A stretch of 64,000 bases of DNA from NCBI RefSeq assembly GCF_006517255.1, contig NZ_CP041185.1, positions 372,001 to 436,000 of the forward strand, read 5' to 3'. The notes beneath the pieces are model-generated. The model made no database searches, was not told the origin of the DNA, and worked only from the letters and a program-made list of their open reading frames with translations. Below, piece by piece: positions 28,847 to 43,961 of this stretch; position 1 is the stretch's first letter; each line of letters begins with the position of its first letter. The position numbers and the translations under genes are program-made. This stretch comes from Janthinobacterium tructae. GTDB lineage: Bacteria > Pseudomonadota > Gammaproteobacteria > Burkholderiales > Burkholderiaceae_D.

Positions 28847-31800
28847 TCAAGTTGCTGAAAACCCCCCTGTGCGCGCCAGTTGGTCCGCCGCCAGAAAACA
28901 CGCGCTGGCCTCTTCCTCCAGCCCTTGCAGCTGCAATGCCGCACCCAGTTCGCGCTGCAATTGCGCATCGCCGGGAACCAGCGCCAGCGCCAGGCGGTAA
29001 TGCGCGGTGGCACCCTGCAAGTCACCCATTGCCAGCAGGACCGTAGCCAGATTGGCGTGCGCCAGGGCGTAGCCGGGATCGATCAGGACCGCCTCGCGCA
29101 AGCTTGCCGCCGCGCCGGCCATGTCGCCAGTGGCATGCCTGGCGCTGCCCAGGTTGCCATGCGCCTCGGCAAAGCCGGGCTCCAGTTCGAGCGCACGCAG
29201 GTAGCAGGGGATGGCGGCGGCATGTTGGCCGGCACCTTGCCACGCATTGCCGAGGTTGGCGTGCGCCTGGGCATCTGCCGGCGCCAGTTGCACCACTTTC
29301 CCGAGCGCCCCCAGGGCATCTTTTCCTTGCAGTTGCAGCGCGGTGCCGAGCACGCTCCAGCCGAAAGCCGAGGCTGGATGCTGCGCCACCAGCGCATGCG
29401 CAGCCTGTTCCATCTCCGCATATAATCCGGCATGGAACAACTCGGCGATATGGTTTGCGCTGGCCTCGGGCACAGTGTCGGCTTGTGCTACTGGCGCGCC
29501 TTGGGCGCGCGCCAAGGCCGCCTGCATCGCCGGCGTGTCGAAGCCGCGTCCGATGGCGCTCGCCAGCACTTCGGCGGCCGCTTGCGCCTGCGCTGACTGC
29601 AGCAATCCCTGCGCGTAAGAAAGAATGAATTGCACCTCACCGGGGGCACTCAGCATCGCTGCGCGCAAGTAAGGCAGCGCCTTGTCGGGAAAACCCAGTT
29701 GCGCTGCCAGCAAACCCATGTTGTGATTGGCGATCGCATGGTCTGGCTGGCGATGGATAATGGCCAGGTACAGCGTTTCTGCTTCGACAAAACGGCTGGC
29801 CTGGTGATGTTCGATCGCCAGTACCAGCGCCGTATCGACATTTACCGAATGCAGCGCTTTCATGCTGTTCGCGCGCCGGGCCAGCGAGCTTTGCGCAGGG
29901 TCGGCTTCAAAAGTTGCGGTGGGCAAGCCGGCGCACCAGCGCTGCCATATGCTTCGCAGGGCGTTTTCCAGGCCTGCGGCGATCAGCGCCGGCTGGCCTG
30001 CGGCGGAGTTGTTCAGCCGCGCGCGCATGTCGGTTCGCAACTGGCCGAGTGCGGCAATGTCACTGGCGATAGCGACGCCTTTTTGCATGAAATCGGCCTC
30101 GTCCTGGGCGATGAACTGATCCAGTCCCAGGTGACCCAGAATGGCCGCACCGACCCGGCTCGGCAATGTCTGGCCGACCATGGTCAGCGTCGGCACGCCC
30201 ATCCACAGCGCATGCAAGGTGGTGGTGCCGCCGGTATAAGGCCAGGTGTCGACGCAGACATCCACCAGCCGGTGCATGACGAGATAGTTTTGAATGTCGG
30301 TCACTGCATGAAAACTCAGGCGCTCGGCAGCGATGCCTTCTTCATCGAACCAGCCGCGCAGCATCGCCGTGATTTGCTCGCTGGGCATGCCGGCAACCAG
30401 CATCCTGGCTGTCGGCACGGCGCGCAGCAGGCTTGACCAGCGGGCGACCACGTCACGGCTTATCTTGTTGGCACGGTTGAAACTGCCAAACGTGACATGG
30501 CCGTTGACCAGCGCCGGCGCGGGCGAGATGGCTGGCGCCTCCGGTGAAGGGACATAGGGTGCGCAAGCTGGCAGTAACAGCAACTTTTCGGTAAATTGCT
30601 CATCGAGCAGGCCTGGCGGTGAAAAATGGCGGTCCGTCAGGTAGTAATCCATCGCCAGCATGCCGGTGGTCATCGGGTAGCCCATCCATGTTGCTTGCAA
30701 CGGGGCTGGCTTGCGCGCGAATGTCAGCAGGCGGTTATAGCCGGTGTGGCCGGACAGGTCGATCAGGATGTCGATGCCATCCTGGCCGATCTGCCGTGCC
30801 AGTTGTTCATCTGATAAGGCCTGGACATTGTGCCACCGGCCCACCACGGCGCGCAAATGGGCGGTGATGTGATCGTCCACTTTGTTGTTGCAATAGATGA
30901 ATACTTCCAGTCGTGTCGCGTGCATCAGGTTTTCCAGCACGGGCGTAATGAAATTGGCCATCGCGTGGTTGTTCAGATCAGCCGAAACAATGCCGATGCG
31001 TAAGGTGCGTTCCGGATCAGGCTGGTTTTGGTGGCGCGGCCACAGGGCGCGCAACGGTGCTTCGAATTGCTGGCCGAAACGCTGGTGCTCCTTGAACAGC
31101 GTGTCCGGATGGGTGCTGGCGCTGTGCGTGAGTGCGAACAACATATTGCTGTGCATCTCGTTCCATGCGGGATTGATGCCGATGGCATGGCGGCATGCCG
31201 CAACGGCTTCGTCGATCCGTCCCAATTTGCTCAATGTGGCACTGAGATTGTTGTGCGCCGCATAAAAGTGCGGATCGTACTGGATGGTATTGGAAAAATG
31301 GATCAGTGAATCGTCTAGCTTTTCCAGCAACAACTGGACCGTGCCCAGATTGAAATGGGCGGAGGCGAAATGCGGGTTGATTGCCAGCGCGCGCTGATAT
31401 TCCTGCGTGGCCAGGTCGATTTGTCCTCGCGCCTGCAACACCGAGCCGATATTGTTGTGTGCGTGGGCATGATCAGGTTCGATCGCCTGCATCTGGCGGT
31501 AAGCCGCCATCGCTTCATCGAGTTGGCCCACCGCCTGCAATGCATTGCCCAGTTCGTTAAGGGTCTGCACATCGCATGCATCGAGCAGTAATGCGGCCTG
31601 GTAACTGTCGATGGCTTCGTCGTGACGTCCGCTCTTTGTCTGCAGTTCAGCCAGTTTTTTCCAGGCTGCCGGCGAGGCGGGCGCCAACATGATCGCACGC
31701 CGGTAAGCTGCCTCGGCGTCCGTCAGCTTCTCCATGGCCAGCAGTGCAGTGCCGATGCTGAGGTGGATGGCCGCGTCAGCGGGCAGCGTTGCCTGGACCG

Positions 31801-31909: not shown

Positions 31910-32274
31910 AGTGGATTCAGTTGGAAGAAGGATAGGAGCTGTCGGCACTGATTGTAATGGATTAGTGTGCGCTAAAGAAACGCGCTACTGCGATTTCTGA
32001 TAGCTGGCCTCTGATAAAAGGCGGTATGGCAAGGCATGTCGCTGGTTTGCATGTCGTTATGCACGAGCGCCAATTGCCGCGTATTGTCGCACAGCGGATG
32101 CACACAGCAAAAACAAGCTGAAAAATCCATTCGGGCGGCGGAGACGCCGCCACATGGTGGCTGGAGTGCCCATCATGAAGAATGTCTGGCGCGACAGGGC
32201 AGGGGCATTCGGACAGGCGAGAGGCAGGCGCCTGCCTTCGCACAGTCTGGCCTGCTGGATGCGTTTCAAGCGGT
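31910..32274. other. Intergenic region of 365 bp between two glycan-island genes
   Basis: Separates the first OGT-like gene from the leftward methyltransferase operon. It contains a 7-bp GC-rich hairpin (32134-32140 with 32145-32151) followed on the minus strand by a T-run after eight bases. That could be a weak terminator for the operon ending at 32275. The remainder probably holds the promoter of the OGT-like gene. No coding signal seen. Confidence 0.45.
32134..32151 (-). terminator. Possible weak terminator behind the glycan operon
   Basis: GGCGGCG/CGCCGCC stem with a four-base loop; on the minus strand TTTTT follows only after about eight other bases. It lies 124 bp behind the last gene of the operon. 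Confidence 0.4.
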
Positions 32275-33375
32275 TCAGCGCAACTGCAGGAAGAGGGCGG
32301 TACCCATCACAAATGCCGAGCCGATCCTTTGTTGCTGTTGCGCCAGGAACTCATCGCCGGCACGCTGCGGCCCGTCGCCATACGGCCAGACATAATCATC
32401 AATGATGATCCAGCCGCCGGCCACCACATGCTTCTCCCAGGCGGCGATATCGGCCTGGGCTGCCTCGTAGGCATGGTTGCCGTCAATGTGTAGCAGTGCA
32501 ATACTGCCGGCATAGTTGGTGGTGCCGAAGGACGGGCTATGCACGGCTGCCGTCTGGCGGTACTGCTGTTCCGCCGCGACCGAGGGCAGGCGCAGATAGT
32601 TGATATCGTTGGCGCTGTATGGCAGCAGGTTCATCTCGAACACGCGCAGCGCTTCATCGTAATCGTAATGGTGGATGCAGTTGTCGACCAGGCCGCCAGT
32701 GTCGTTCTGCACCACGTAGTCACTTTGCCAGGGGTCGATGCACAAAGTGTGGCCGATGTCATGCAGGCGTGCCAGGCGTGCCAGCACAAACGCCGACTTG
32801 CCCCATGCGCTGCCGATTTCCACCACGTCGCCGCGCACGCTGTGGCGGGCAATTTCGTAGAGGGCGCTGATTTTCTCGTCATCGCACATGCCTGGAATCA
32901 CATTGGCATGGCGGAAAAGGGTGGCCAGTTGCAGTTCCGGCAAAGCCGGCTTTGTGTCGACCACCGAGGCGATCGGCAGTGGCGTAGCCAGGGTCTTGCG
33001 GGCATGCGCCATGGCAGAGCGGTAGCCGCTCATTTCATCATGTACCGGTGAAGCGTTGACCAGGGGAATGGTCGGTTGCAGGTCCTTGAGTACCTCATTC
33101 AGATAGCTCCAGACGACCGGATTTGGGGTATAAATGCCGCCAATGCCACGCTGCGCGATCAGCAGTTGCAAGGCCTCCAGGAAACCCGGATCATTTACAT
33201 ACGGCAGGAAGGCCCATTCCGGATAGGCCGGCTTGCTGACATCGTAAGCGAGCGACGAGGCGCCGATCACGCTTTGTCCATCGCGCTTGCAGCGCTCCAG
33301 ATAGTCGAGCGAGCGAGGCATGCCTGCAGGAAAAATCAAGATCGGTTTGTTGAGGGCCGTGGGCGAGGCATGCAT
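32275..33375 (-). CDS. Class I methyltransferase fused to a pre-ATP-grasp-like domain
   Basis: 366 residues. The C-terminal part (about 175-366) is a SAM-dependent methyltransferase of the Methyltransf_24/TylF style: GDVVEIGSAWGKSAFVLARLA (motif I), HTLCIDPWQSDY, LLHIDGNHAYEAAQADIAAW and GGWIIIDDYVWPYGDGP. The first about 110 residues (KPILIFPAGMPRSLDYLERC, then DGQSVIGASSL and IGGIYTPNPVVWSYLNEVL) look like the nucleotide-binding pre-domain of ATP-grasp enzymes but no ATP-grasp follows. A sugar or acyl-sugar O-methylation role is inferred from the operon. The ATG at 33375 is preferred; the frame extends further back without similarity. Last gene of the operon. Confidence 0.75.
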   Translation of the reverse strand: MHASPTALNKPILIFPAGMPRSLDYLERCKRDGQSVIGASSLAYDVSKPAYPEWAFLPYVNDPGFLEALQLLIAQRGIGGIYTPNPVVWSYLNEVLKDLQPTIPLVNASPVHDEMSGYRSAMAHARKTLATPLPIASVVDTKPALPELQLATLFRHANVIPGMCDDEKISALYEIARHSVRGDVVEIGSAWGKSAFVLARLARLHDIGHTLCIDPWQSDYVVQNDTGGLVDNCIHHYDYDEALRVFEMNLLPYSANDINYLRLPSVAAEQQYRQTAAVHSPSFGTTNYAGSIALLHIDGNHAYEAAQADIAAWEKHVVAGGWIIIDDYVWPYGDGPQRAGDEFLAQQQQRIGSAFVMGTALFLQLR

Positions 33376-33424
33376 GGAGATTCCTTGTTGGGTAAATCGG
33401 ACGTTACTGAAGGGCGCGGTCAGC

Positions 33425-34423
33425 CTAGGTGCGCGGCGGCAAGGCCGAGGCGCTCTCCTGTTGCCGCTTGATGGCGGCGATGTCGCGCAGCAGGGCGCGC
33501 ATGCCGCGCGATGCCGGCGGCAGGTCGTGCTCAATCTGGCCGCGCAGCGCTTTCAGCTGGTAGAACGGTACCGCCGGGTACATATGATGTTCGATGTGGT
33601 AATTCATCTGCCAGTACAAAAAAGCCAGGAAAGGGTGCAGCAGGACCGTGCGGCTGTTCAGGCGGAAATCGTCGACATCGGGCTGCATGCCGAAGTGCTG
33701 CGCCAGCGCCAGGGTCTTGTTGAGCCAGTCCGCGATAAAGGTGGCGAATGTGACAAGCAATAATAGCGGCCAGTGGCCACTGGCAACAAAGGCGGCGGCC
33801 ATGGCAAGATGGCCGAACAGGATGATGCGGGCAAACCGGATGACGGCACGGCGCGATGCCTGGTCCGGGAACAGTTGGGCACCCCACTGGCCGCGAATGA
33901 TGCCCAGGCTGTTTTCCACCACGATCTTGATGGCCCGGTAGCAGGCCGGCAAGTCGAACGACAGCGCCCAGAACCATTCCCTGTAGCGCAGCGTCTGCGG
34001 CAAGCGGACTTCACCGTCCTGGCCGCTGAGCACGGTTTTCTGGTGATGGCGGATATGGCTGGCCCGGAAATACACATAGTTATTCCAGGTCAGGAACGCG
34101 AACAAGGCCAGGAAGACATCGTTGTACACACGCGTCTTGAAGACAGTGCGGTGTACCAGTTCATGCCCTGCCCCAGCCCAGCCCAGGAAGGAAAAAAAGC
34201 TGCCATGAAGGAAGAGTGCTGCCAGGGCCAAGCCATGATGGCCGTTCAGGAAGGCACAGTACGCCAGCGTTCCGGTGCCGCAGAGCAGCAGCAGATGGCT
34301 GGCGACATGCAATGCACCCTGCATGTCGCTGCGTCGCATCAAGGCCGACAGTTCGGTGCCTGTCAGCTTGCTGCGGTACCAATTGACACGGGTTGGTGGC
34401 TTTGCACCGATTTTTTCTGTCAT
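33425..34423 (-). CDS. Membrane fatty-acid desaturase family protein
   Basis: 332 residues with several hydrophobic segments and the three His boxes of membrane di-iron desaturases/hydroxylases: HELVH at 87-91, HIRHH at 123-127 and HIEHH at 276-280. An additional His (AQHF, residue 243) fits the family. It would introduce a double bond or hydroxyl in a lipid-linked or carrier-linked acyl chain. Substrate unknown; the neighbouring ACP and adenylate-forming enzyme suggest an acyl group destined for the sugar. Start ATG 34423 lies one base past the upstream stop. Confidence 0.85.
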   Translation of the reverse strand: MTEKIGAKPPTRVNWYRSKLTGTELSALMRRSDMQGALHVASHLLLLCGTGTLAYCAFLNGHHGLALAALFLHGSFFSFLGWAGAGHELVHRTVFKTRVYNDVFLALFAFLTWNNYVYFRASHIRHHQKTVLSGQDGEVRLPQTLRYREWFWALSFDLPACYRAIKIVVENSLGIIRGQWGAQLFPDQASRRAVIRFARIILFGHLAMAAAFVASGHWPLLLLVTFATFIADWLNKTLALAQHFGMQPDVDDFRLNSRTVLLHPFLAFLYWQMNYHIEHHMYPAVPFYQLKALRGQIEHDLPPASRGMRALLRDIAAIKRQQESASALPPRT

Positions 34424-34424
34424 G

Positions 34425-35165
34425 TTATTGTGTGAGCAGGTGCTTGAAGTTGCCATTCAGTATAAAGGCCAGCATGGTATTTTCAACATGGATCACGGCC
34501 CGGTCGCCACTGAAATCATCGACAAAGCGGGTCACGTCGCCATGGATCTTCGAGCGGTAGTCGTGCCACAGGATAACGGAGTCAGGCTTGGCCATGGCCA
34601 GTGCGTTGGCGGTATCGATCGTCACCGTCTCGTAATCATGGCCGCCATCGATGAAGATGAAATCGAATTGACCGCTCAATTGCTGCGCTTGCGGATCGAG
34701 CTTGCGGCTGTCCAGGTGCAGGCGGGTAATTGCGGACTGGACGTCGGCTGGCGCGCGGTCGATGTAGAACGCGCCTTTTTCCGCAAACTGGCGGCGCAGG
34801 TAATTGTCGTTTTCCGTGTCATTTTGCAGGATCAGGGCGGCCGTGTCGCCGCTGACGGCGGTCAGGTCGATCTCGGCAGGCGGCAGGTCCAGCGTGGTGA
34901 CATGGGCGCCGGGCGGCGCGTTGCTCGCCAGTAAAACCGAGGTGGCGCCCATGTAGGTGCCGAATTCAAAAAAAGCCTGCGCCCCGGTCAGCTTCGCAAG
35001 GCTGACCAGGATCGAGCTTTCCAGCAGCGTCATGCCGCCGATGGCGCTGCTGGGGATGCTGACGCTGAACATGATGTTTGCGTCGGGAAAGGTCGTTTCA
35101 ACCTTCTGGAAAAGAACTTTGGGGCGTATCGCGCTGACCTGGGGGGCGCTGGTGGTGGTAGGCAT
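34425..35165 (-). CDS. Class I SAM-dependent methyltransferase
   Basis: 246 residues, Methyltransf_24 type: FFEFGTYMGATSVLLASNAPPGAHVTTLDLPP (motif I with the Gly loop, and the acidic residue binding the adenosine ribose), FDFIFIDGGHDYETVTIDTANAL, and SVILWHDYRSKIHGDVTRFVDDF. The family includes O-methyltransferases acting on sugars. It lies one base before the desaturase and 17 bp behind the FkbM gene in one operon. Target unknown. Confidence 0.82.
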   Translation of the reverse strand: MPTTTSAPQVSAIRPKVLFQKVETTFPDANIMFSVSIPSSAIGGMTLLESSILVSLAKLTGAQAFFEFGTYMGATSVLLASNAPPGAHVTTLDLPPAEIDLTAVSGDTAALILQNDTENDNYLRRQFAEKGAFYIDRAPADVQSAITRLHLDSRKLDPQAQQLSGQFDFIFIDGGHDYETVTIDTANALAMAKPDSVILWHDYRSKIHGDVTRFVDDFSGDRAVIHVENTMLAFILNGNFKHLLTQ

Positions 35166-35182
35166 GATGGATCCTGTTATTG

Positions 35183-36304
35183 TTAAGCTGCTGATTCCGC
35201 GGTGGTTTGAGCGGTATTGCGGCGTGGCACGAAGTACATGATCGTTTCCGACCAGCCCTGCGTGTAATGGCGCAAATACAGGTCGTAGTCCTGGCGGATG
35301 CTGGCGATATAGTCGGGAATGCGATGGAAATCGGCGGCGCTATGGTAGACGGAAATGGCCAGCTTGGGATGCTCGTCGCGGATATGGCGCTGCGAGCCGG
35401 CCAGGGCCTGCATTTCCCAGCCCTCCAGGTCCATCTTGATGAAACTGACTGCCTGCGTGATGGCCAGGTCGAGGGTGGTTACCTCGATACTGCTGGAGCC
35501 GGCCGCACTGACTGCGCTGGCCGAACCTGCATCCGGATTGAACCACAAGGTACCGGCCTGGTCGGAAATGCCTTGTTCGATGAAGCTGATGCCGTGCCGC
35601 TGCGCCAGGCGCGTTTTTGCGTCCTGCATGTTCTTCGCTGACGGTTCGAATAGGAACACGGCCCGGTAGTCGGGATAGCGTTCGCAGAACAGCTCGGTCG
35701 TATCGCCGTCGAATCCGCCGGCGTCGACAAACACTTCGCCCGACAAGCACAGGAAGTCCTCGAAATACTGCTCCGAGAATCGCACCTCGTAGCTTGCCAT
35801 GTGGCGCGGATCGGCAGTGAGCCGGTATTGCACCACATGGTCGAAGACCGCCCTTGACTCCTCATCGGCAAATTGGGCGCGCAAGTGGTCCCAGCGGGGA
35901 CGGTTGGCGGCGACATCGGCACGCATTTGCGCGACGAAGGCGGGTACCGGCACCAGGTCGGGACGCGCTGCCAGCAGGTCGGCATAGCTGAGCCTAGCCT
36001 TCACCGGCTGCTGCGCCAGCTTGCGGGCGGCCGCAACCGGTGCAATCGACATGGCGCAATTGACCACCATGGCATCGGACGGGAGTTGCTGCATGGCGAT
36101 GACCGGCTTGCCATGCCATTGCGTGCCACTGGCGCCGTCGTCGACGATGCCGTCAATCGGGATGTCCAGCGTCGACAGCAGGGCCAGCGCATGTTCATTG
36201 CGTCCCAGCAGGAAGCGCGGCGCGCTCACCAGGGCCGATAGAAACGCCTGTGCCTGTTCTTTCGCGACGGCGTGCCGCGTGATCGGTATTGCTGTAGCTG
36301 ACAT
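35183..36304 (-). CDS. FkbM-family methyltransferase with N-terminal extension
   Basis: 373 residues. The C-terminal 210 residues are FkbM-like: GEVFVDAGGFDGDTTELFCERYP (motif I), YRAVFLFEPSAKNMQDAKTRL, ISFIEQGISDQAGTLWFN, SIEVTTLDLAITQAVSFIKMDLEGWEMQALAGS and the LAISVYHSAADFHRIP end. The first 130 residues contain APRFLLGRNEHALALLSTLDIPIDGIVDDGASG, a Rossmann-like segment often found in front of FkbM domains in sugar clusters. FkbM enzymes O-methylate sugars; that role fits this operon. Confidence 0.85.
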   Translation of the reverse strand: MSATAIPITRHAVAKEQAQAFLSALVSAPRFLLGRNEHALALLSTLDIPIDGIVDDGASGTQWHGKPVIAMQQLPSDAMVVNCAMSIAPVAAARKLAQQPVKARLSYADLLAARPDLVPVPAFVAQMRADVAANRPRWDHLRAQFADEESRAVFDHVVQYRLTADPRHMASYEVRFSEQYFEDFLCLSGEVFVDAGGFDGDTTELFCERYPDYRAVFLFEPSAKNMQDAKTRLAQRHGISFIEQGISDQAGTLWFNPDAGSASAVSAAGSSSIEVTTLDLAITQAVSFIKMDLEGWEMQALAGSQRHIRDEHPKLAISVYHSAADFHRIPDYIASIRQDYDLYLRHYTQGWSETIMYFVPRRNTAQTTAESAA

Positions 36305-36343
36305 GGTTAATCTCCGTGCATGGGATGCTCGATGTGCATCTCT

Positions 36344-36586
36344 TCAGGCGGTTTTGTTGTCGATCAGGGCAAGCAAGCCCCGCACCGAGCGGAATTGTTG
36401 CGACTCGATATCATCGTCGTCCAGGGTGATATCGAAGCGCGCTTCCAGTTCCAGGATGAACTTGATGATGGCCATCGAGTCGATGATACCGGCGGCAAGG
36501 AAGTCGTCGTCGTCGGTGAAATCAGCAGGCAACGGTGATTTCCTGGCCAGCAGGGTGAGGATGAATGCACGGATATCGTCTTGCAT
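36344..36586 (-). CDS. Acyl carrier protein
   Basis: 80 residues, acidic, helical. The phosphopantetheine site is Asp-Ser-Met at 36-38 (GIIDSMAIIKFILELE), preceded by DDDDFLAAG. The context (adenylate-forming enzyme, N-acyltransferase, desaturase) suggests a dedicated carrier for an acyl group, not the ACP of fatty-acid synthesis. It is the shortest gene in the operon. Confidence 0.9.
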   Translation of the reverse strand: MQDDIRAFILTLLARKSPLPADFTDDDDFLAAGIIDSMAIIKFILELEARFDITLDDDDIESQQFRSVRGLLALIDNKTA

Positions 36587-36607
36587 GGTGTTGCTTTCTT
36601 TGTGGGT

Positions 36608-37759
36608 TCAGGCCTGGATGGTTTCCCAGCGGCGGCTTTGCGAGGATGCGACCATGGCTTCCAGGAAATGCATGCCTTCCAGGGCCAGTTCCGCACTGTA
36701 CACAGCGCCGCCCTGCCATGGCAGGCCTTGTTGAAATTGCCTTACTCCAACGGCTATATCGCCGTACAAATTGGCGAAGGCTTCGATGAAACCCGCCGGG
36801 TGGCCGGCCTTGAAGCGGTTGTAGCGCAGGGCGTTGGTGACTTCGACCTGGCCTGCCCGGTCGATGATCTCGCGTCGGCCGTCGACATGCGACAGGGTCA
36901 GTTCCTCAGGTTGTGCCTGATACCACTCGGCAGCAGCCAAGTCGCCATAGATGCGGATGCGCAAGCCGTTGCGATGGCCCAGCGCCGACTTGCTGAACCA
37001 GAATTGGCCTTGAATGTTGCCGCTGTACTGGCACAGGCAGCCCGCGTTGTCGACCACCCCGGCGAACCAGCCATAGTGATTCTGGTCCGATACCAGTTCC
37101 AGCGGCTTTTCGCCTGTCAGGTAGGCTACCATCTGGTGCAGGTGGACGCCGAGATCCAGATGCAAGGTCGGGATGGCGCCATCGGCCAGTCGCCACGCCT
37201 GCGGTGTCGGCTTGTTGCCCCTGGCGTCGACGCGGACAAAGCCTTCCTGCGGCATTTCGGCCTGGAAGTGCAGGATCTTGCCCAGTTTTCCATCGCGGAT
37301 CTTGCGCTCGAGTTCGCGCAACATCGGATAGCCAGCATAGTTATACGTCACTGCCAGGAAGGCCTGGTGTGCGTCGCGTACGGCGATGATCTGGCGCGCC
37401 TGCTCACTGCTGACGGCAAGCGATTTTTCGCAGATGACGGCGATGCCGGCACGCATGCAGGCCAGTACGCTGTCGACATGTGACGGGGTCGGGGTCAGGA
37501 TCACGACAGCATCGATGTTGCCCTTTTCGCTGGCCAGCAATGCTTGCCAGGTGTCGTAGATGCGTTCCGGATGGACGCCGTACACCTGTCCGCTTTCCTG
37601 GTTGGACTCGGCATGGCGGCTGAAGCAGCCAGCCACCAGCGTCCACAGCCCATCCATGGCGCTCGACACAAAATGTGAATAGCCAACGGCGGAACTGCGC
37701 GAGCCGCCGATAAACGCCAGCCGCAGCGGTGCCAGGGGCACTGTGTTTGTATTTTCCAT
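36608..37759 (-). CDS. Gfo/Idh/MocA-family sugar oxidoreductase
   Basis: 383 residues. The N-terminal Rossmann domain has LRLAFIGGSRSSAVGYSH as the dinucleotide loop, IDAVVILTPTPSHVDSVLACMRAGIAVICEKS (the usual EKP motif reads Glu-Lys-Ser here), and VTYNYAGYPMLREL. The C-terminal domain has HLDLGVHLHQM and INRF-like AGHPAGFIEAFANLY. In sugar clusters this family oxidises a hydroxyl of a nucleotide sugar to a ketone for the partner aminotransferase. Four bp behind the ligase gene. Confidence 0.85.
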   Translation of the reverse strand: MENTNTVPLAPLRLAFIGGSRSSAVGYSHFVSSAMDGLWTLVAGCFSRHAESNQESGQVYGVHPERIYDTWQALLASEKGNIDAVVILTPTPSHVDSVLACMRAGIAVICEKSLAVSSEQARQIIAVRDAHQAFLAVTYNYAGYPMLRELERKIRDGKLGKILHFQAEMPQEGFVRVDARGNKPTPQAWRLADGAIPTLHLDLGVHLHQMVAYLTGEKPLELVSDQNHYGWFAGVVDNAGCLCQYSGNIQGQFWFSKSALGHRNGLRIRIYGDLAAAEWYQAQPEELTLSHVDGRREIIDRAGQVEVTNALRYNRFKAGHPAGFIEAFANLYGDIAVGVRQFQQGLPWQGGAVYSAELALEGMHFLEAMVASSQSRRWETIQA

Positions 37760-37762
37760 GTT

Positions 37763-39316
37763 CTATTCCCGCTCCGGGGAGCTTGCGTATGTCTGGACAA
37801 GTTGAAATTTCATCAGTTTGCCCATGCTGTTTTTCGGTAGCTGCTCAACAACAAAAAAGCGCCGCGGCTGCTGGAAGTCCGCCAGCGCATGGGCGCAGTG
37901 AAAGCGCAGCTGGCGCAGGTCGAAGCTGGCGGGATCGCTGGCGACCAGGGCCACGGCCACCACTTCGCCCAGCCTGGCGTCGGGAAAGGCAAAGGCGGCG
38001 CTTTCCGTGACGGAACCGTGCGAGCCGATCGCTGCCTCGATGTCCGCAGGATAAATATTGATGCCGCCGCTAATGATGACGTCTTTTTTTCGTCCCAGAA
38101 AGTACAGATAGCCGTCTTCGTCCAGCTTGCCGATATCGCCGGTACGGAAATATTCGCCACACATCGCCGCGCGGGTCAATTCGGGCAGTTGAAAGTAGCC
38201 GCCAAACAACATGGTGGTCTTGCAGACGATTTCGCCAGCCTGGCCGGACGGCAATTGCTCATCGTTTTCACCCAGGATGCGCAGTTCGACCCCGGGCGCA
38301 GGTCGGCCCACCGATTGCAGTTTGGTGCGCGCCGCATTGCCATCGAGATTGGTGGCGATAGCGATTTCCGAGGCGCCATAGCATTCATGGAAATCGCAGG
38401 AAAAGCGCGCCAGCAGATCGATTTTTACAGCGTTTTCCAGCAGGGCCGACGATGACACCAGGCAGCGCAAGCTGCTGACGTCGTGTTCGTCCTGCGCCAT
38501 GTGGGCGGCAATCTGCTTGAGTTGTGACGAGACCGCAATCGTGAAGCTGACCTGTTGCGCCTGCACGCAGCGTAACCAGGCCTGGGCCGAGAAATGGGGC
38601 ATCAGCACGGCGCTGCCGCCGGTCAGCAGTGGCAGCAGTACCAGGCGCTCGGCCAGGGAGTGATACAGCGGCGTGGCGGCCAGGGTGCGATCCTGCGCCG
38701 TGATGCCGTAAAGCTGTACCGCCGCGCGTAGACGGTTGAGTTTGGTGCGCTGGGTCAGCACGATGGGCTTGGGGCTACCCGTCGAGCCGGAGGTCATGGT
38801 CAGGATCAGGGCGTCATCTGCCCGGCCCGCGTACAAAGGCCGTGCATCGGCCGGCGCCGCCTGCAGCAGCTGCTCCAGCGTGATGGTGCCGGCGCCGGCG
38901 GCATCGATGCTGAGCCAACACCCATGCACAGCGTCGCTGCCTGGCTCTGCGCGCAGGGCCGCCAGTTGTGGTGACGTTGACACCAGGTGCCTGGCCTGCG
39001 CTGCCTGCAAGGAGTGCAGGGCGACCGCCGGCGGCAAGGCCGGACTGAGCGGTACCAGCCCGGCGCCAAGGTCGGCGGCCACCAGTATCAGGGCAACAAA
39101 TTCCACATTGTTGGGCAAGATGACGCCGATCTGGTCGCCGCGTCGCACGCCGTTGGCCGCCAGCGCGTTCGACCAGCGCGCCACCAGTTGCGCCAGCGTC
39201 GCGTAACTGATTTCCCGGCCTTCGCAGGCAAGCGCGATTTTTTCCGGCGTGGCTGCGGCGTGGGCAAAGAAAATACCGCTGATGCTCTCCGGTACTGACT
39301 CTCGAGGCTGCATCAT
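37763..39316 (-). CDS. Adenylate-forming acyl ligase (AMP-binding family)
   Basis: 517 residues of the ANL superfamily. The P-loop-like motif TMTSGSTGSPKP (about 172-183), ECYGASEIAIATN, FRTGDIGKLDEDGYLYFLGRKKDVI and the C-terminal catalytic Lys in PKNSMGKLMKF are all in order. It activates a carboxylic acid as acyl-AMP and passes it to CoA or, here more likely, to the ACP encoded two genes downstream. The acid cannot be predicted from the sequence. The ATG overlaps the stop of the NeuD-like gene (ATGA). Confidence 0.88.
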   Translation of the reverse strand: MMQPRESVPESISGIFFAHAAATPEKIALACEGREISYATLAQLVARWSNALAANGVRRGDQIGVILPNNVEFVALILVAADLGAGLVPLSPALPPAVALHSLQAAQARHLVSTSPQLAALRAEPGSDAVHGCWLSIDAAGAGTITLEQLLQAAPADARPLYAGRADDALILTMTSGSTGSPKPIVLTQRTKLNRLRAAVQLYGITAQDRTLAATPLYHSLAERLVLLPLLTGGSAVLMPHFSAQAWLRCVQAQQVSFTIAVSSQLKQIAAHMAQDEHDVSSLRCLVSSSALLENAVKIDLLARFSCDFHECYGASEIAIATNLDGNAARTKLQSVGRPAPGVELRILGENDEQLPSGQAGEIVCKTTMLFGGYFQLPELTRAAMCGEYFRTGDIGKLDEDGYLYFLGRKKDVIISGGINIYPADIEAAIGSHGSVTESAAFAFPDARLGEVVAVALVASDPASFDLRQLRFHCAHALADFQQPRRFFVVEQLPKNSMGKLMKFQLVQTYASSPERE

Positions 39317-39993
39317 TCCTGTCCCGCCATGCCGGAAAATTTAAGGAAGGAACTGCTTTTCAGGCGGAACAGCTGGCCCGCTTCGGACAGGTAGACCTGG
39401 TCGTCGAGGGTGTCCCGGTTGATCAAGGTATTGGCGGCAATGAAATTGCGCGCACCCAGCCGCAAGCCGTGCGCGGTCGAGGAGTTGACGCCGAAAAAGC
39501 AGGCGTCACCAATGCTGCAGCCACCTGCGATAGCGATGCCGGCGTTGATCCAGTTGTAGGCGCCGATCACGCAATCGTGGCCGAGATTGACGTTGCTCGA
39601 AATAAAAGTGCCACGTCCGATGCGGCAGCCGGGATGGATAGACACATGGTCCAGGATGATGCAGCCGTCCTCGATCAGCACGTCATCGTGACGCAGCACG
39701 GAGGCGTGCACAAAACTGGCCAGGTGGTAGCCTTTTTCCTCGGCTTCGCGGTGCTTGCGCGCCCGTAAGGCATTCATTTCCAGGAATCCCACCGCGATCA
39801 GCATATCGTGCTCATCGGGTGGCAGCTGCAGCGCAACCTGGCTGAATGGCAGCAATGGCAAGCCCAGGAAGCTGGTCGTGGCGTCGTCGATACAGGCATC
39901 GTCGACTGTGAAGGCGACAATGTCCATGCTGTGGCGTGCGTAGGAATATAACAGTCTGGCAATGGCGCCATTGCCGTAAATAATGGTTTTCAT
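39313..39993 (-). CDS. Sugar N-/O-acyltransferase, NeuD/PglD type
   Basis: 226 residues. The N-terminal Rossmann-like part starts MKTIIYGNGAIARLLYSYA and the rest is a left-handed parallel beta-helix of hexapeptide repeats (IEDGCIILDHVSIHPGCRIGRGTFISSNVNLGHDCVIG). His139 in NLGHDC corresponds to the catalytic base of PglD. Typically acylates an amino sugar made by the neighbouring DegT enzyme. The donor here may be acyl-ACP or acyl-CoA because a ligase and ACP are encoded next to it. The ATG at 39993 overlaps the aminotransferase stop. Confidence 0.86.
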   Translation of the reverse strand: MKTIIYGNGAIARLLYSYARHSMDIVAFTVDDACIDDATTSFLGLPLLPFSQVALQLPPDEHDMLIAVGFLEMNALRARKHREAEEKGYHLASFVHASVLRHDDVLIEDGCIILDHVSIHPGCRIGRGTFISSNVNLGHDCVIGAYNWINAGIAIAGGCSIGDACFFGVNSSTAHGLRLGARNFIAANTLINRDTLDDQVYLSEAGQLFRLKSSSFLKFSGMAGQE

Positions 39994-41132
39994 GATGGCT
40001 TGGTCATGCAACTTGCCAGGCGAATGACGTCGACTACGCGATCTTGCTGCTCCGCCTGCAGCTCGGGATAGATCGGCAGACAGATGACCTGGCTGGCCAC
40101 TTCACCAGCCAACGGCAGATTCGCGCGGGCTGCCGAGGGCATGTTGCGGTACATTGGAAAATCGCTGATCAGGGGATAAAAGTAACGGCGTGCAATGATG
40201 CCGGCCTGGCGCAAGGTGTCGAACAGGGCATCGCGCGACAGGGCGTAGCCCGGCTGCACCAGAATCGGGAAGTACGAGTGGTTGGCGCTCGTCTCGGGCG
40301 CATCGGGCGGGCAATAAATGCCGGCGATGCCTGCCAGCTGTTCGCGATAGCGGCGTGCAACCTTGCTGCGTTCGCGCAGCGCGGTGTCGATGTTTTTCAA
40401 CTGCAGCAGCCCGAACGCGGCGCTGACCTCGTTCATCTTGCCGTTGATGCCGGCCGCGACCACCGTCACTTCATCGATAAAGCCGAAGTTTTTCAGATGG
40501 TCGATATGGCGCTTCATCTTGGCGTCGCTGCAGACGATGGCGCCGCCTTCGAAGGTATTGAATACTTTGGTCGCGTGAAAGCTCAGTACCGACAGGTCGC
40601 CATGCGTGAGCAGGCTGTTGCCCTGGTAGTTGACGCCGAATGCATGGGCCGCGTCATAGATCACTTTCAATCCATAATTGGATGCAATTTCATCGATCGC
40701 AGCGACGTCGCATGGCCTGCCGTAGCAGTGCACGGGCATGATGGCGGTGGTCTGTGGCGTGATCGCCGCTTCGATTTTCCTGGGGTCGATATTGAAGGTG
40801 CCTGGTTCAATATCGACAAATACGGGCTTGATGCCATTCCATAGCAGGGAGTGCGCAGTGGCGACGAAGGAATATGGCGTGGTGATCACTTCTCCCGTGA
40901 TACGCAGCGACTGCAAGGCGGTCATCAGCGCCAGGGTACCGTTGGAAAACAGCGAAATGTATTTCACACCCAGATAATCGGCCAGCGCCTGCTCCAGCTG
41001 GCGATGGAAAGGCCCGCCGTTGGTGAGAATCTTGTTATTCCAGATCTGCTCCAGGTAAGGAATAAATTCCTCCAGGGGCGGCAGCGTGGGCTGTGTAATG
41101 TAGACAGGCGTATTTTTATCTTCTTGGGTCAT
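39990..41132 (-). CDS. DegT/DnrJ/EryC1/StrS-family sugar aminotransferase
   Basis: 380 residues, PLP-dependent. Signatures are LFSNGTLALMTALQSL (cofactor phosphate site), TTPYSFVATAHSLLWNGIKPVFVDIEP, YDAAHAFG with Asp160, and the PLP Lys189 in SFHATKVFNTFEGGAIV. It converts a keto sugar nucleotide into the amino sugar. The trio of aminotransferase, hexapeptide acyltransferase and Gfo-type oxidoreductase occurs in pathways such as WbpB/WbpE/WbpD, which make 3-acetamido sugars. A 4-amino product of VioA/VioB type is equally possible. Confidence 0.92.
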   Translation of the reverse strand: MTQEDKNTPVYITQPTLPPLEEFIPYLEQIWNNKILTNGGPFHRQLEQALADYLGVKYISLFSNGTLALMTALQSLRITGEVITTPYSFVATAHSLLWNGIKPVFVDIEPGTFNIDPRKIEAAITPQTTAIMPVHCYGRPCDVAAIDEIASNYGLKVIYDAAHAFGVNYQGNSLLTHGDLSVLSFHATKVFNTFEGGAIVCSDAKMKRHIDHLKNFGFIDEVTVVAAGINGKMNEVSAAFGLLQLKNIDTALRERSKVARRYREQLAGIAGIYCPPDAPETSANHSYFPILVQPGYALSRDALFDTLRQAGIIARRYFYPLISDFPMYRNMPSAARANLPLAGEVASQVICLPIYPELQAEQQDRVVDVIRLASCMTKPS

Positions 41133-43807
41133 GGTTGACCTTCCTCTTGCGGTTCCCCAACAATACCGCTACTTGTCGCTTCAAAACTAGCCGGCATCAC
41201 TCCCGCACACCAGCGTTGCCACATATGACGCAGGGCGACTTCCAGCCCCTGGGCAATCTCGTCCGGCCGCCCGCTGGCCGCGTTGCGCATCCGTTCGCGC
41301 ATTTCCTTGCGCATGCCGGCAAGCCGGCCGGGATCGCTGGCGTGCGCCACTCCTTTGGCGAGGAAATCTTCTTCTCCGTAGGCGATGAAATCCTGTAATC
41401 CCGCATGCGACAGGATGGCGGCACTGACGTAGCCTGGCAAGGTGGAACCCACCATGGTCAGGGTGGGCACGCCCATCCATAAGGCGTGAAAGCCGGTGGT
41501 GCCGCTGGTGTACGGGTAGGTGTCGAGGCAGAGGTCGACCTGACTGTGCAATGCCAGGTAGTCGTGCATATTGGTGTAGCCATGAAACGTCAGCCGCCCG
41601 GCGTCGATGCCCTCGTGGGCAAACCACGAACGCAGCTTGTCGCTGGCCTGCTTGTTGGGCATCGCTGCGAGCAGCATTTTTGCCTCTGGCACCATACGCA
41701 ACAATGCGGACCAGCGGGCGATGACTTCGCGGCTCAATTTGCCCGCCCGGTTAAAACTGCCAAAAGTGATGTAGCCATTTTCGCTCGCCGGTGCCGGGCT
41801 GACCTCCGGCGCTTCGGGATATGGCAGAAAAGGCGCGGTAGCAGGCAAGCGCACCAGCTTCTCGGTGAACTGGTCGTCAAGTTCGCCGGGCGGTGAAAAA
41901 TAGCGATCCGTCAGAAAATAATCCATCGCCTGCAAACCTGTCGTCCCTGGGTAACCGATCCAGGTAAGTTGCAACGGTGCCGGCTTGCGCGCGAAAGTGG
42001 GCAGGCGATTGAAGCCGGTATGGCCCGACAGGTCGATCAGGATGTCGATCGCGTCACTGGTGACCAGCTGCGCCAGTTCCGCATGGCTCAGTTTTTCAAC
42101 CTGGCGCCAGACCGCGAACAGGCCGTGCAGGTGCCGGCTGACATGGTCATCGTGAAAGCTGTTGGCGTAGGCCACGATTTCCACTTGCCGGGATTGGCTC
42201 AAGTATTCGAGAATGGGCGTGATGAAATGGGCTACCGCATGGTTATACAAGTCGGCGGAAACGAAGCCGATACGCAGGCGGCGCTCGGGATCGCGCGTGT
42301 TGCCGTGCTGCGGCCAGGAGGCGCGCAACGGCGCCTCGAAATGCTCGGCATAGCGGACATGTTCCGCAAACAGGGATGCAGCATCGAGATCCTGGCTATG
42401 CGTCAGGTAGAACAGCAGGTTGCTGTGCAATTCATCCCAGTCCGGATTGATCTTCAGTGCCTTGCGGCAATGCACGATGGCTTGGTCGATACGGCCCAGG
42501 CGGTTCAATGCTGCACTGATATTGACATACGCCCGGCGGTGATGCGGATCGAGTTTGACCACGGTTTCAAAACTGTTGACGGCTTCGCTCAGGCGGCCCA
42601 TCTCCATCAGGCAAGTGCCCAGGTTGACATGCGCGGCGGTCGATTTTGGCCCCAGCTTCACGGCGCGGCGGCAGCTTTCCAGCGCGGCTTCCCGCTGTCC
42701 CATATCGTTCAGGGCGGCGGCGATATTGCTGTGGGTGACAGGATTGTCCGGTGCCAGCAGGGCCACTTGCCGGAACGACGCCAGCGCCGCCTCCAGTTGG
42801 CCGTCTTCCTGCAGGGCCATGCCGAGGTTGTTGAGGGCGTCGATATTATCGGGTTCCAACAGTAGCACCGCCTGGTAGATGGCGATGGCTGGCTCCTTGC
42901 GCCGGGTTTCACGCAACAGGTCGGCGTAATGCAGCATGGGTGCGGCGAGCGAGGCGTCGAGCGCGATCGATTGCCGGTACGCGCTCTCGGCATCGGCCGT
43001 TGCGCCGAGCGCATGCAAACTGCGCCCCAGGCCATGGTAGTGTGCCGCGTTTGCCGTCGGCAACGCCGTGGCGCTGCGATAGCTGGCCGCCGCCTGCGCA
43101 TTGCGATCCAGCCGGAACAGCACATTGCCCATGCCGCCATGCGCCATGGCGTTTTCAGGATCTATCTCCAGCGCTGCTGCATAACTTTGCAGTGCCGCAT
43201 CCGGCCGGTTCAGGGCGACGTGCACGTCGCCGAGCTTGCGATGAATGTCGGCTGCGCCCGGTTCCAGTGTCAGCGCCTGGCGATAGCTCGACTGCGCCGA
43301 CTGAAATTGTTGCTGCGCCACCAAGACATCGCCCTTGCCACGATGCGCCATGGCCAGTGCGGGATCGATCTCCAGCGCGCCGCCATAGCATTCCGCGGCT
43401 TCCTTCAGATGCCCTTGCGCTTGCAGCACGTCGCCCAGGCGGCTGAGCGCTTCGGCAAAGGCTGGCGCCAGTTCCAGGGCGCGCATGAAATACGGCATGG
43501 CCAGGTCGGGATGGCCGCCATCCATATGGGCATTGCCCAGGTGCAGATGGGCTTCGGCGTCGTCGGGTGCCAGTTCCACCGTCTTCTGCAGGGCTGGCAA
43601 GGCGTCCTTGCCCTGCAGCCGCAAGGCCATGCCCAGCACGCTCCAGGCCAGCGCCGATACGGGGTAGGCGTCCACCATGGCGCGTGTCGCCTCCTCCATT
43701 TGGACCTGCTCACCGCTTTCATACAGGCGCACGATGTGATCGATTTCCTGTTGACTCGGCTGTTGAACGTCGCTCGGCGGCGATGTTGCGGGATCGGTAG
43801 CGTGCAT
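41129..43807 (-). CDS. TPR/O-GlcNAc-transferase-like glycosyltransferase
   Basis: 892 residues, first gene of the leftward glycan operon. About twelve TPR repeats fill residues 20-470 (for example AHLHLGNAHMDGGHPDLAMPYFMRALEL). The catalytic domain occupies about 500-870: LRIGFVSADLYNHAVAHFITP, DILIDLSGHTGFNRL, FGSFNRAGKLSREVIARW with the donor-binding Lys, and CLDTYPYTSGTTGFHALWMGVPTLTMVG. Unlike the paralogue at 28847-31909 there is no C-terminal TPR block. The overlap with the aminotransferase start (ATGA) links it to sugar synthesis. Probable transferase of the sugar made by the operon. Confidence 0.9.
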   Translation of the reverse strand: MHATDPATSPPSDVQQPSQQEIDHIVRLYESGEQVQMEEATRAMVDAYPVSALAWSVLGMALRLQGKDALPALQKTVELAPDDAEAHLHLGNAHMDGGHPDLAMPYFMRALELAPAFAEALSRLGDVLQAQGHLKEAAECYGGALEIDPALAMAHRGKGDVLVAQQQFQSAQSSYRQALTLEPGAADIHRKLGDVHVALNRPDAALQSYAAALEIDPENAMAHGGMGNVLFRLDRNAQAAASYRSATALPTANAAHYHGLGRSLHALGATADAESAYRQSIALDASLAAPMLHYADLLRETRRKEPAIAIYQAVLLLEPDNIDALNNLGMALQEDGQLEAALASFRQVALLAPDNPVTHSNIAAALNDMGQREAALESCRRAVKLGPKSTAAHVNLGTCLMEMGRLSEAVNSFETVVKLDPHHRRAYVNISAALNRLGRIDQAIVHCRKALKINPDWDELHSNLLFYLTHSQDLDAASLFAEHVRYAEHFEAPLRASWPQHGNTRDPERRLRIGFVSADLYNHAVAHFITPILEYLSQSRQVEIVAYANSFHDDHVSRHLHGLFAVWRQVEKLSHAELAQLVTSDAIDILIDLSGHTGFNRLPTFARKPAPLQLTWIGYPGTTGLQAMDYFLTDRYFSPPGELDDQFTEKLVRLPATAPFLPYPEAPEVSPAPASENGYITFGSFNRAGKLSREVIARWSALLRMVPEAKMLLAAMPNKQASDKLRSWFAHEGIDAGRLTFHGYTNMHDYLALHSQVDLCLDTYPYTSGTTGFHALWMGVPTLTMVGSTLPGYVSAAILSHAGLQDFIAYGEEDFLAKGVAHASDPGRLAGMRKEMRERMRNAASGRPDEIAQGLEVALRHMWQRWCAGVMPASFEATSSGIVGEPQEEGQP

Positions 43808-43895
43808 GAGAGGAGGGGAGAGTGTATGCCACCTTCAATTGTAACGGTTGGCAGTGCTTTATAGAAACATCTTCTTCAGAAAGTTCAGTTTGAAA

Positions 43896-43933
43896 AAAAT
43901 GGCGTGGACATCTTGCGACGCCCACGCCATTTT
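43896..43933. terminator. Intrinsic terminator behind ETF-QO
   Basis: Stem ATGGCGTGG/CCACGCCAT extended by A-T pairs (43896-43907 with 43922-43933), a 14-base loop, and A-run/T-run flanks. It lies 29 bp after the leftward ETF-QO stop codon. Confidence 0.85.
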
Positions 43934-43961
43934 ACATAGCAGCTTGCCAGGAATCAGCAGT

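What the first reader, a model, noticed from the sequence alone, without database searches (positions are those of the whole stretch)
28847..43807. Glycan island with its own acyl carrier system beside the flagellin gene
Nine tightly packed minus-strand genes (32275-41132) lie between two OGT-like enzymes, next to fliC. They include DegT aminotransferase, NeuD/PglD acyltransferase, AMP-forming ligase, ACP, Gfo oxidoreductase, three methyltransferases and a desaturase. Several starts overlap stops by four bases, indicating one operon from 43807 to 32275. The set could make an N-acyl, O-methyl amino sugar whose acyl group is loaded on a dedicated ACP. Known flagellin islands (Pseudomonas viosamine and PAK types) share part of this set, but I do not recall the combination with a desaturase and paired OGT/TPR enzymes.
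Basis: partly seen in the sequence, partly recalled or inferred. Interest (0 to 1): 0.78.

Follow-up and report, generated by a model that had tools for sequence, protein, structure and literature searches.

The report
Swappable gene island for flagellin sugars
Beside a flagellin gene of a Janthinobacterium sits a set of genes that probably builds an unusual decorated sugar and attaches it to the flagellum; it is one interchangeable version of a known kind of island, with some new arrangements of parts.

Summary
The genome is a Janthinobacterium; no other GT41 gene was found in it. It looks like a flagellin glycosylation island. A GT41 gene lies at this site in 33 of 40 genus genomes; the sugar cassette inside varies, and this one was seen in 4 of 40. 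In 7 of 40 a ketoacyl-synthase/reductase cassette, like the P. syringae viosamine island, sits there instead. The core DegT-NeuD-ligase-GFO-ACP recurs in six lineages outside the genus: a GT41 gene is close by in five (the sixth contig is too short), flagellar filament genes in three; Herminiimonas has all nine genes beside fliC. Likely product: an N-acylated, O-methylated 4-amino-4,6-dideoxyhexose on flagellin. Islands with ACP, ligase, GT41, FkbM, NeuD and DegT genes are published, so this is a new variant. New here: the desaturase-like gene, an apparent swap of ATP-grasp for ligase-ACP-acyltransferase, and a TPR-GT41-TPR enzyme seen only beside long flagellins (7 of 7). All chemistry is inferred.

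The parts
27553..28728 (-). fliC, flagellin of 391 aa ('long' type: a 192-residue Ala/Thr-rich middle with 47 Ser/Thr)
   Evidence: Pfam Flagellin_N 135 bits, Flagellin_C 77 bits; composition
28847..31948 (-). OGT2: TPR-GT41-TPR protein, 1033 aa (GT core about 311-685, C-terminal TPR tail of 348 aa); probable second flagellin glycosyltransferase
   Evidence: Pfam PF13844 and TPR families on both sides; core borders and NH / FNxxxK motifs
32275..33375 (-). MT24a: Methyltransf_24 protein with an extra N-terminal domain of about 190 aa, 366 aa; start corrected from 33534
   Evidence: PF13578 66.5 bits; start and ribosome site
33425..34456 (-). DES: membrane FA_desaturase/hydroxylase-like di-iron enzyme; histidine boxes HELVH, HIRHH, HIEHH
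   Evidence: PF00487 106.5 bits; histidine boxes
34425..35165 (-). MT24b: Methyltransf_24 O-methyltransferase-like, 246 aa
   Evidence: PF13578 58 bits
35183..36304 (-). FkbM-family methyltransferase with an extra N-terminal domain
   Evidence: TIGR01444 63.8 bits over the cut-off 37.7
36344..36586 (-). ACP: stand-alone acyl/peptidyl carrier protein, 80 aa, DSM motif with Ser37 as the probable phosphopantetheine site
   Evidence: PF00550 37.9 bits; nearest solved chain is a peptidyl carrier protein, 2my5; motif
36608..37759 (-). GFO: Gfo/Idh/MocA oxidoreductase, 383 aa
   Evidence: PF01408, PF22725; 67-71% identical in L086, L087 and G1287
37763..39316 (-). LIG: AMP-forming acyl ligase, 517 aa; near FadD13, feruloyl- and malonyl/oxalyl-CoA ligases
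   Evidence: PF00501 228 bits; solved relatives
39313..40011 (-). NeuD/PglD/VioB-type left-handed beta-helix sugar N-acyltransferase; the likely ATG start overlaps the DegT stop
   Evidence: TIGR03570 137 bits, below its cut-off 160.8; PerB and PglD are the nearest solved chains
39990..41132 (-). DegT sugar aminotransferase, DesI-like (C-4 amination of dTDP-4-keto-6-deoxyglucose, inferred)
   Evidence: PF01041 353 bits; DesI model is the best NCBIfam hit, 316 bits, below its cut-off 650; best solved hit 2po3 (that this chain is DesI is recalled)
41129..43807 (-). OGT1: TPR-GT41 protein, 892 aa, probable flagellin glycosyltransferase, first gene of the run
   Evidence: PF13844 154 bits; SPINDLY is the nearest solved natural full-length protein
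43962..45638 (-). ETF-ubiquinone oxidoreductase: conserved far border of the variable site, not part of the system
   Evidence: PF05187, PF21162; present in 40 of 40 genus genomes

Best explanation
This is the flagellin glycosylation island of a Janthinobacterium. DegT aminates a nucleotide-linked 4-keto-6-deoxyhexose, most likely dTDP-4-keto-6-deoxyglucose made by RmlB enzymes encoded elsewhere, giving a viosamine-like (Qui4N) sugar. LIG activates a small carboxylic acid and loads it on the dedicated ACP; the NeuD-type enzyme moves the acyl group to the 4-amino group. GFO and FkbM probably make or finish the acid, because the same pair occurs elsewhere with an ATP-grasp enzyme in place of LIG-ACP-NeuD. 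The two Methyltransf_24 proteins O-methylate, and the di-iron membrane enzyme hydroxylates or desaturates, the acyl group or the sugar. OGT1 and OGT2 transfer the finished sugar to Ser/Thr of flagellin in the cytoplasm; OGT2, with TPRs on both sides, would serve the long flagellin's extra Thr/Ala-rich domain. The cassette is an exchangeable donor module. Shown: gene content, order, conservation, exchange at the site and flagellar linkage. Inferred: every chemical step, the donor, the acyl group and the acceptor sites.
For: Families of all genes. GT41 matches in the genome only here, two genes. Three RmlB-type genes over the cut-off elsewhere. Same site in the genus: GT41 in 33 of 40 genomes, interior variable. 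The core recurs outside the genus at 38-73% identity (same order; DegT moved in G1313), with a Pfam-confirmed GT41 gene close by in 5 of 6 lineages and filament genes adjacent in 3 of 6. Herminiimonas has all nine genes beside fliC-fliD-fliS. Alternative cassette at the same site with KAS III, ketoreductase, hexapeptide acyltransferase, an ACP-sized protein and a Rieske oxygenase, which parallels the P. syringae viosamine island proved by mass spectrometry (PMC3927599, text parts 1-2 of 5). OGT2 architecture only beside long flagellins, 7 of 7. Mosaic identity at the site: 97.6% with G024 over the cassette but only partial matches in fliC; 95.5% with G019 through fliC, then 73% from OGT2 onwards.
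Against: No glycan data for any of these flagellins. The core also occurs away from flagellar genes (G430 about 47 kb off; G1254 beside polysaccharide genes), and island-type GFO occurs in three genomes without a flagellin match, two of them with FkbM (G119, G891) and one without (G1073). So the cassette is a general sugar-decorating module, and its target here rests on location and GT41. NeuD and DegT lie below the NCBIfam cut-offs of their nearest models. There is no sequence clue to the acid. The long flagellin also occurs without OGT2 in 4 genomes, and the TPR-GT41-TPR proteins do not form one branch in the GT-core tree.
Confidence: 0.77

Rival explanations
1. The cassette makes a sugar for LPS or another surface polysaccharide and only happens to lie beside fliC.
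For: GFO-FkbM-DegT parts sit among sugar-nucleotide and glycosyltransferase-like genes (by eye) in genomes without a flagellin match (G119, G891); G1254 carries the core near polysaccharide-type genes (by eye); O-antigens often carry N-acyl Qui4N (recalled).
Against: No Wzx/Wzy, membrane glycosyltransferase or priming transferase among the proteins scanned in 28847-43807. The only transferases are TPR-GT41 enzymes, and the core is beside filament genes in four placements: Janthinobacterium, Herminiimonas, G1287 and L087.
Confidence: 0.12
2. One of the two OGT-like proteins is not a transferase of the decorated sugar: for example, OGT2 adds O-GlcNAc or fucose first and OGT1 adds the decorated sugar, or one enzyme acts on other proteins.
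For: OGT1-type GT cores form one branch that excludes both OGT2-type branches; SPINDLY, the nearest solved natural full-length relative of OGT1, uses GDP-fucose (solved hit, donor recalled).
Against: Both lie at the flagellin site and the OGT2 architecture tracks the long flagellin (7 of 7), which suggests that its acceptor is that flagellin.
Confidence: 0.3
3. LIG-ACP-DES is a small lipid or secondary-metabolite pathway (unsaturated fatty acyl product) unrelated to sugars.
For: DES relatives are named fatty acid desaturases in public data and LIG is nearest to fatty-acyl-type ligases; the ACP resembles peptidyl carrier proteins.
Against: In the seven lineages seen (Janthinobacterium and six others) LIG and ACP come with DegT, NeuD and GFO; no DES match was found in four of them (G1287, G1254, G430, L087), and GT41 is the constant neighbour.
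Confidence: 0.05

Closest known systems
Flagellin glycosylation islands (FGIs) of Enterobacteriaceae (PMC4875605; passages and section 9 read)
   Same: Variable inserts at the flagellin locus with GT41, DegT, NeuD, FkbM and other methyltransferases, ACPs, CoA ligases and FabG
   Different: No desaturase is mentioned there (0 occurrences); no ATP-grasp/ligase-ACP exchange in the parts read; many of its GT41 proteins carry methyltransferase domains, as does the one of G761 here, while OGT1 and OGT2 do not
Viosamine island of Pseudomonas syringae pv. tabaci 6605 and PAK glycosylation island (PMC3927599; parts 1-2 of 5 read)
   Same: Aminotransferase, hexapeptide N-acyltransferase, dedicated ACP and O-methyltransferase making dTDP-N-acyl-O-methyl-viosamine for flagellin
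   Different: There the acyl chain is built by KAS III and reduced by a ketoreductase; here an AMP-forming ligase and GFO stand in their place. A desaturase-like enzyme and TPR-GT41 transferases are added; in P. syringae the sugar caps a rhamnose chain
Aeromonas polar flagellin island group II (PMC7874193; passages read)
   Same: ACP plus AMP-dependent synthetase in a flagellin island
   Different: Has 3-oxoacyl-ACP reductase, LuxE and LuxC; desaturase, Rieske and FkbM have 0 occurrences; DegT, NeuD and GFO were not looked for there
FlmG of Caulobacter crescentus (PMC7591256; passages read)
   Same: Soluble flagellin O-glycosyltransferase with an N-terminal TPR domain that binds flagellin and a C-terminal GT-B domain; a Caulobacter genome is a GT41 control hit
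   Different: FlmG uses pseudaminic acid and has 596 aa; OGT2 has TPRs on both sides of the GT core and the presumed donor is an acylated amino-dideoxyhexose
SPINDLY / OGT (GT41)
   Same: Family and NH / FNxxxK motifs (role of the motifs recalled)
   Different: Donor GDP-fucose or UDP-GlcNAc and nucleocytoplasmic targets (recalled)

Membership tests
Flagellin glycosylation island | Insert at the flagellin locus | tested here: met
   Between ETF-QO and fliC; same site in the genus
Flagellin glycosylation island | Glycosyltransferase plus sugar biosynthesis genes | tested here: met
   Two GT41, DegT, NeuD, methyltransferases
Flagellin glycosylation island | Content varies between close relatives at a fixed site | tested here: met
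   This cassette in 4 of 40, KAS III cassette in 7 of 40, other contents in others; a few of the 40 stretches are cut short by contig ends
Flagellin glycosylation island | Flagellin carries the glycan | not testable with these tools
   Needs mass spectrometry
P. syringae-type viosamine island | VioA-type aminotransferase, VioB-type hexapeptide transferase, ACP, methyltransferase | tested here: met
   Family level only
P. syringae-type viosamine island | VioS (KAS III) and VioR (ketoreductase) acyl-building pair | tested here: not met
   Absent among the proteins scanned between 28847 and 43807; present at the same site in relatives with the other cassette (L062 copies scanned)
P. syringae-type viosamine island | VioT-type transferase capping a rhamnose chain | tested here: inconclusive
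   Transferases are GT41; the VioT sequence was not compared
GT41 (OGT/SPINDLY) family | PF13844 over the cut-off with TPR repeats | tested here: met
   166 and 154 bits against a cut-off of 25
GT41 (OGT/SPINDLY) family | Catalytic His/Lys motifs (motif assignment recalled) | tested here: met
   NH and FNRxxK in both window proteins; over the 40 GT cores compared my NH pattern was found in 33, FNxxxK in 40
FlmG class | TPR N-terminal domain plus GT domain, encoded with flagellar genes | tested here: met
   OGT1 fits; OGT2 has a further C-terminal TPR block
FlmG class | Nonulosonic (pseudaminic) acid as donor | not tested
   No pse/neu synthase among the island proteins scanned; the rest of the genome was not searched for one

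The most novel reading that the evidence does not exclude
The flagellin of this lineage carries a new amino sugar whose acyl group is a hydroxy acid finished by a GFO/FkbM pair, carried on its own ACP, oxidised by a membrane di-iron enzyme and methylated up to three times. Acid-making and amide-forming parts are exchangeable across bacteria (ATP-grasp, ligase-ACP-NeuD, or KAS III-ACP-ketoreductase with a Rieske oxygenase). A TPR-GT41-TPR enzyme goes together with an enlarged, Thr/Ala-rich flagellin domain as its dedicated acceptor.
Probability: 0.33. Interest if true: 0.6.

Novelty: new variant of a known kind. Interest (0 to 1): 0.45.

Why it matters
It gives a natural series in one genus: one site, one border gene, one flagellin locus, and several interchangeable sugar-donor cassettes combined with two types of flagellin and of GT41 enzymes. 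That makes two open questions testable by simple swaps: how GT41 flagellin glycosyltransferases choose donor and acceptor, and what the FkbM/GFO pair and the iron oxygenases do in flagellin sugars. If the ligase-ACP-acyltransferase set replaces ATP-grasp enzymes, it also helps annotate LPS and flagellin loci of other bacteria.

Tried and rejected
Chance or artefact: rejected, because the nine genes recur in the same order in a MAG at 61-69% identity and eight of them in order in Herminiimonas.

Fatty-acid/lipid operon: rejected as main reading; see rivals.

A second paired-GT41 island in Herminiimonas: I first read its second OGT-like gene as GT41. Pfam shows only TPR repeats in its 372 aa, so it was dropped.

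Amino-acid-loading (PCP/A-domain) system: the ACP is nearest to a peptidyl carrier protein, but the ligase is nearest to acyl-CoA-type ligases and its PLYHSLAER stretch looks acyl-type (judged by eye from recalled motifs).

MT24a N-terminal domain as a remnant of the ATP-grasp enzyme: no significant similarity.

Promoter and terminator scans: promoter-like sites as many as in shuffles, terminator-like sites 19 against 15.8. A strict sigma-28 pattern gave no hit in the window.

Desaturase against solved structures: no match up to E 0.1, so its substrate could not be narrowed.

Literature: searches gave no paper that I could recognise as being on Janthinobacterium flagellin glycosylation or on a desaturase in a flagellin island. 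The two papers and the two were seen in the listing only. The Burkholderia cenocepacia system (Hanuszkiewicz 2014) could not be read; PMC5987112 and PMC3958885 were seen in passages only. No structure prediction was run.
Full report
What is there. The window is bases 372001-436000 of a single 6.31-Mb contig. Reading the minus strand from 43807: OGT1 (TPR-GT41), DegT aminotransferase, NeuD-type acyltransferase, AMP-forming ligase (LIG), Gfo/Idh/MocA oxidoreductase (GFO), acyl carrier protein (ACP), FkbM methyltransferase, Methyltransf_24 (MT24b), FA_desaturase-like protein (DES), Methyltransf_24 (MT24a), then after 326 nt OGT2 (TPR-GT41-TPR) and after 118 nt fliC. The far border is ETF-QO. The start of MT24a should be 33375, NeuD probably starts inside the DegT stop, and four-base overlaps occur at three junctions.

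Genome context. A genome-wide search finds GT41 matches only at this island, in the two genes OGT1 and OGT2. Three RmlB-type dTDP-glucose dehydratase genes over the cut-off lie elsewhere, at about 3.18, 3.67 and 3.69 Mb, so dTDP-4-keto-6-deoxyglucose can be supplied. Four Flagellin_N matches exist: this fliC, one flagellin of a second flagellar locus (beside FliD and FliS), and two that I take by eye to be FlgL-type hook proteins. No GT41 match lies at the second locus.

Same site in the genus. ETF-QO was found in 40 of 40 genus genomes, own included. I read the stretch next to it in the 39 others, up to 20 kb each; six or more stretches are cut short by contig ends, four of them (L055, L061, L083, L084) at 1.6-8.2 kb. 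GT41 genes occur in 32 of 39 relatives plus the window, 33 of 40. The nine-gene cassette is present in G024, G008 and G013 besides the window: 4 of 40. G024 keeps OGT1 but has no OGT2 gene; MT24a looks damaged in two of these copies (about 300 bases missing in G024; a frame change in G008, which could be an assembly error). Another cassette, marked by KAS III-like genes (two in six of the seven loci) and a ketoreductase, is present in 7 of 40 (L052, L054, L062, L066, L067, L069, L079). Six of the seven have the Rieske oxygenase, six a called hexapeptide protein of cluster c18 (the seventh, L054, has one of cluster c15), and five a called 72-74 aa protein that is ACP-sized but has no Pfam match. 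Only the L062 copies were scanned with Pfam; the others are placed by BLAST clusters. Further sites hold hexapeptide or GNAT acetyltransferases, WbqC-like, ATP-grasp, methyltransferase or epimerase genes. Nucleotide identity is mosaic: against G024 97.6% over 33215-44585 but only partial matches in fliC and OGT2; against G019 95.5% through fliC up to 28847 and 73% from OGT2 onwards. So the interior is exchanged independently of its borders.

Two GT41 types and two flagellin types. In a tree of 40 GT cores (38 from relatives, two from the window) OGT1-type cores form one branch of eight. The seven proteins with a tail of 266-348 aa behind the GT core (window OGT2, L047, L053, L058, L060, L069, L076) fall in two branches, one of them sister to OGT1; all fifteen together form one supported branch. 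So this architecture either arose twice or was lost in OGT1. TPR repeats in the tail were checked by Pfam in three of the seven. All seven genomes have a single flagellin of 380-391 aa in the stretch read. Of the 28 other genomes with a scorable flagellin, 24 have only short ones (283-295 aa) and 4 have one of 366-387 aa (L046, L049, L077, L080). For two of the short ones, L073 and L079, the length comes from the ORF calls, because the pattern cut or missed them. Five genomes could not be scored (L055, L061, L082-L084). Fisher's exact test gives 4.9e-5, without correction for shared ancestry, so it is suggestive only. The sugar cassette does not follow the flagellin type: this cassette sits with long (window, L049, L053) and short (L075) flagellins, the KAS III cassette likewise (L069 long, others short).

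Outside the genus. A scan of genome contigs with LIG gave three loci: L085 (J. lividum), L086 and L087 (two proteobacterial MAGs). L086 has the nine genes in the same order at 61-69% identity; its DegT is cut by the contig end and its flanks are not held. L087 has fliD-fliS-(others)-GT41-DegT-NeuD-LIG-GFO-ACP-methyltransferase-FkbM. A LIG profile over 392 family genomes hit 7 at E 1e-140: the four Janthinobacterium plus G1254, G1287 and G1313. It has GT41-NeuD-LIG-GFO-ACP-FkbM-MT24b-DES-MT24a-DegT-(372-aa TPR-only protein)-fliC-fliD-fliS; G1287 has GT41-DegT-NeuD-LIG-GFO-ACP-x-MT24a, pointing away from fliC-fliD-fliS; G1254 has GT41 and the core with polysaccharide-type genes nearby and no flagellin match in the 40 kb read. 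G430, found with a GFO profile, has GT41 and the core about 47 kb from a flagellin match. So for the LIG core outside the genus a GT41 gene (Pfam-confirmed in G1287, G1313, G1254, G430 and L087) is close by in 5 of 6 lineages (L086 cannot be read) and filament genes in 3 of 6. Identities of the core proteins to the window range from 38% to 73%.

The GFO enzyme is more widespread than the cassette. A GFO profile was run on 399 order, 398 phylum and 369 class genomes, own included in each, each an even draw from a larger group with only a few candidates scored per genome. At the set thresholds 9 of 399, 48 of 398 and 4 of 369 genomes had a match. I kept the matches above 400 bits: apart from the window ten genomes, G092, G430, G394, G119, G761, G522, G819, G891, G1073 and G1036. 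I dropped the weaker ones (under 265 bits); two of them, G347 and G145, were read and show no other island gene within 20 kb. In 7 of 10 an ATP-grasp relative lies next to GFO or one gene away (G092, G1036, G119, G522, G394, G761, G891), FkbM being the other frequent neighbour; two of the seven were checked against Pfam (G092, G891). G430 has LIG-ACP-NeuD instead, G819 a 39% LIG-like gene beside GFO, G1073 neither nearby. No ATP-grasp relative was found in the window, L086, L087 or G430, nor in G1287, G1313 or G1254. The simplest reading is that GFO-FkbM make or modify an acid, and that either an ATP-grasp enzyme or LIG-ACP-NeuD joins it to the amino sugar. G761 and G819 have these genes among flagellar genes, and G394 lies some 9 kb from what look by eye like flg genes. 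G119, G891 and G1073 have no flagellin match at all, so the chemistry is not flagellum-specific.

Mechanism. DegT is nearest to DesI among NCBIfam models, below the cut-off, and to 2po3 among solved chains (DesI, recalled); DesI makes dTDP-4-amino-4,6-dideoxyglucose (recalled). NeuD is nearest to PerB and PglD. LIG is nearest to FadD13 and feruloyl- and malonyl/oxalyl-CoA ligases. DES keeps three histidine boxes, so an iron-oxygen reaction is likely; whether hydroxylation or desaturation, and on what, is open. The KAS III cassette also brings an iron oxygenase (Rieske) in 6 of 7, which suggests that oxidation of the acyl group or sugar is a shared theme. The nearest proved pathway is the P. 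syringae modified viosamine, where aminotransferase, acyltransferase, ketoreductase and transferase mutants lose the sugar and the methyltransferase mutant loses 14 Da (PMC3927599).

What is known. Flagellin islands with GT41, DegT, NeuD, FkbM, ACP and CoA ligase genes are published for Enterobacteriaceae (PMC4875605), ACP plus AMP-dependent synthetase for Aeromonas (PMC7874193), and a TPR-GT flagellin transferase is proved in Caulobacter (PMC7591256). I therefore file this as a new variant of a known kind. New as far as my searches go: the desaturase-like gene as a conserved member (Janthinobacterium, Herminiimonas, MAG L086), the ATP-grasp versus ligase-ACP-NeuD exchange, and the TPR-GT41-TPR enzyme tied to long flagellins. 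All chemistry is inference until flagellin is measured. On checking, the odds of the novel case were lowered from 0.35 to 0.33, because the TPR-GT41-TPR proteins are not one branch and Herminiimonas has one GT41, not two.

Noticed in passing
L049 (G024) and L085/L075 (G008), MT24a: The last methyltransferase of the cassette looks broken in two of the four Janthinobacterium copies (a stretch of about 300 bases missing in one, a frame change in the other), so it may be dispensable.
   Followed up: partly
window 26354-27493, minus strand: A 379-aa protein between fliC and flhA with no Pfam match, found in 34 of the 39 genus stretches (cluster c3); its C-terminal part looks FliK-like by eye.
   Followed up: no
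L062:5301-10055 and similar loci: A KAS III/ketoreductase/hexapeptide flagellin cassette of the viosamine type that includes a Rieske oxygenase, which is not among the seven genes listed for the P. syringae island.
   Followed up: partly
L050, L056, L070 and other short-flagellin loci: Many Janthinobacterium genomes carry two to five short flagellin genes at this site, while genomes with the TPR-GT41-TPR enzyme show one long one.
   Followed up: partly
L123, L128, L129, L132, L134, L153, L157 (G092, G394, G119, G761, G522, G891, G1036): A recurring neighbourhood of an ATP-grasp enzyme and GFO, in six of the seven also FkbM, in flagellar, polysaccharide and other surroundings of diverse proteobacteria, probably an acid-making and amide-forming module.
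   Followed up: partly
L132:2971-6318 (G761): A GT41 protein fused to a methyltransferase domain close to fliC, fliD and fliS, like the methyltransferase-GT41 fusions described for Enterobacteriaceae.
   Followed up: no
L171:7707-8822 (G1313, Herminiimonas): A 372-aa TPR-only protein between DegT and fliC that resembles the TPR half of the GT41 enzymes and ends where their GT domain would begin.
   Followed up: partly
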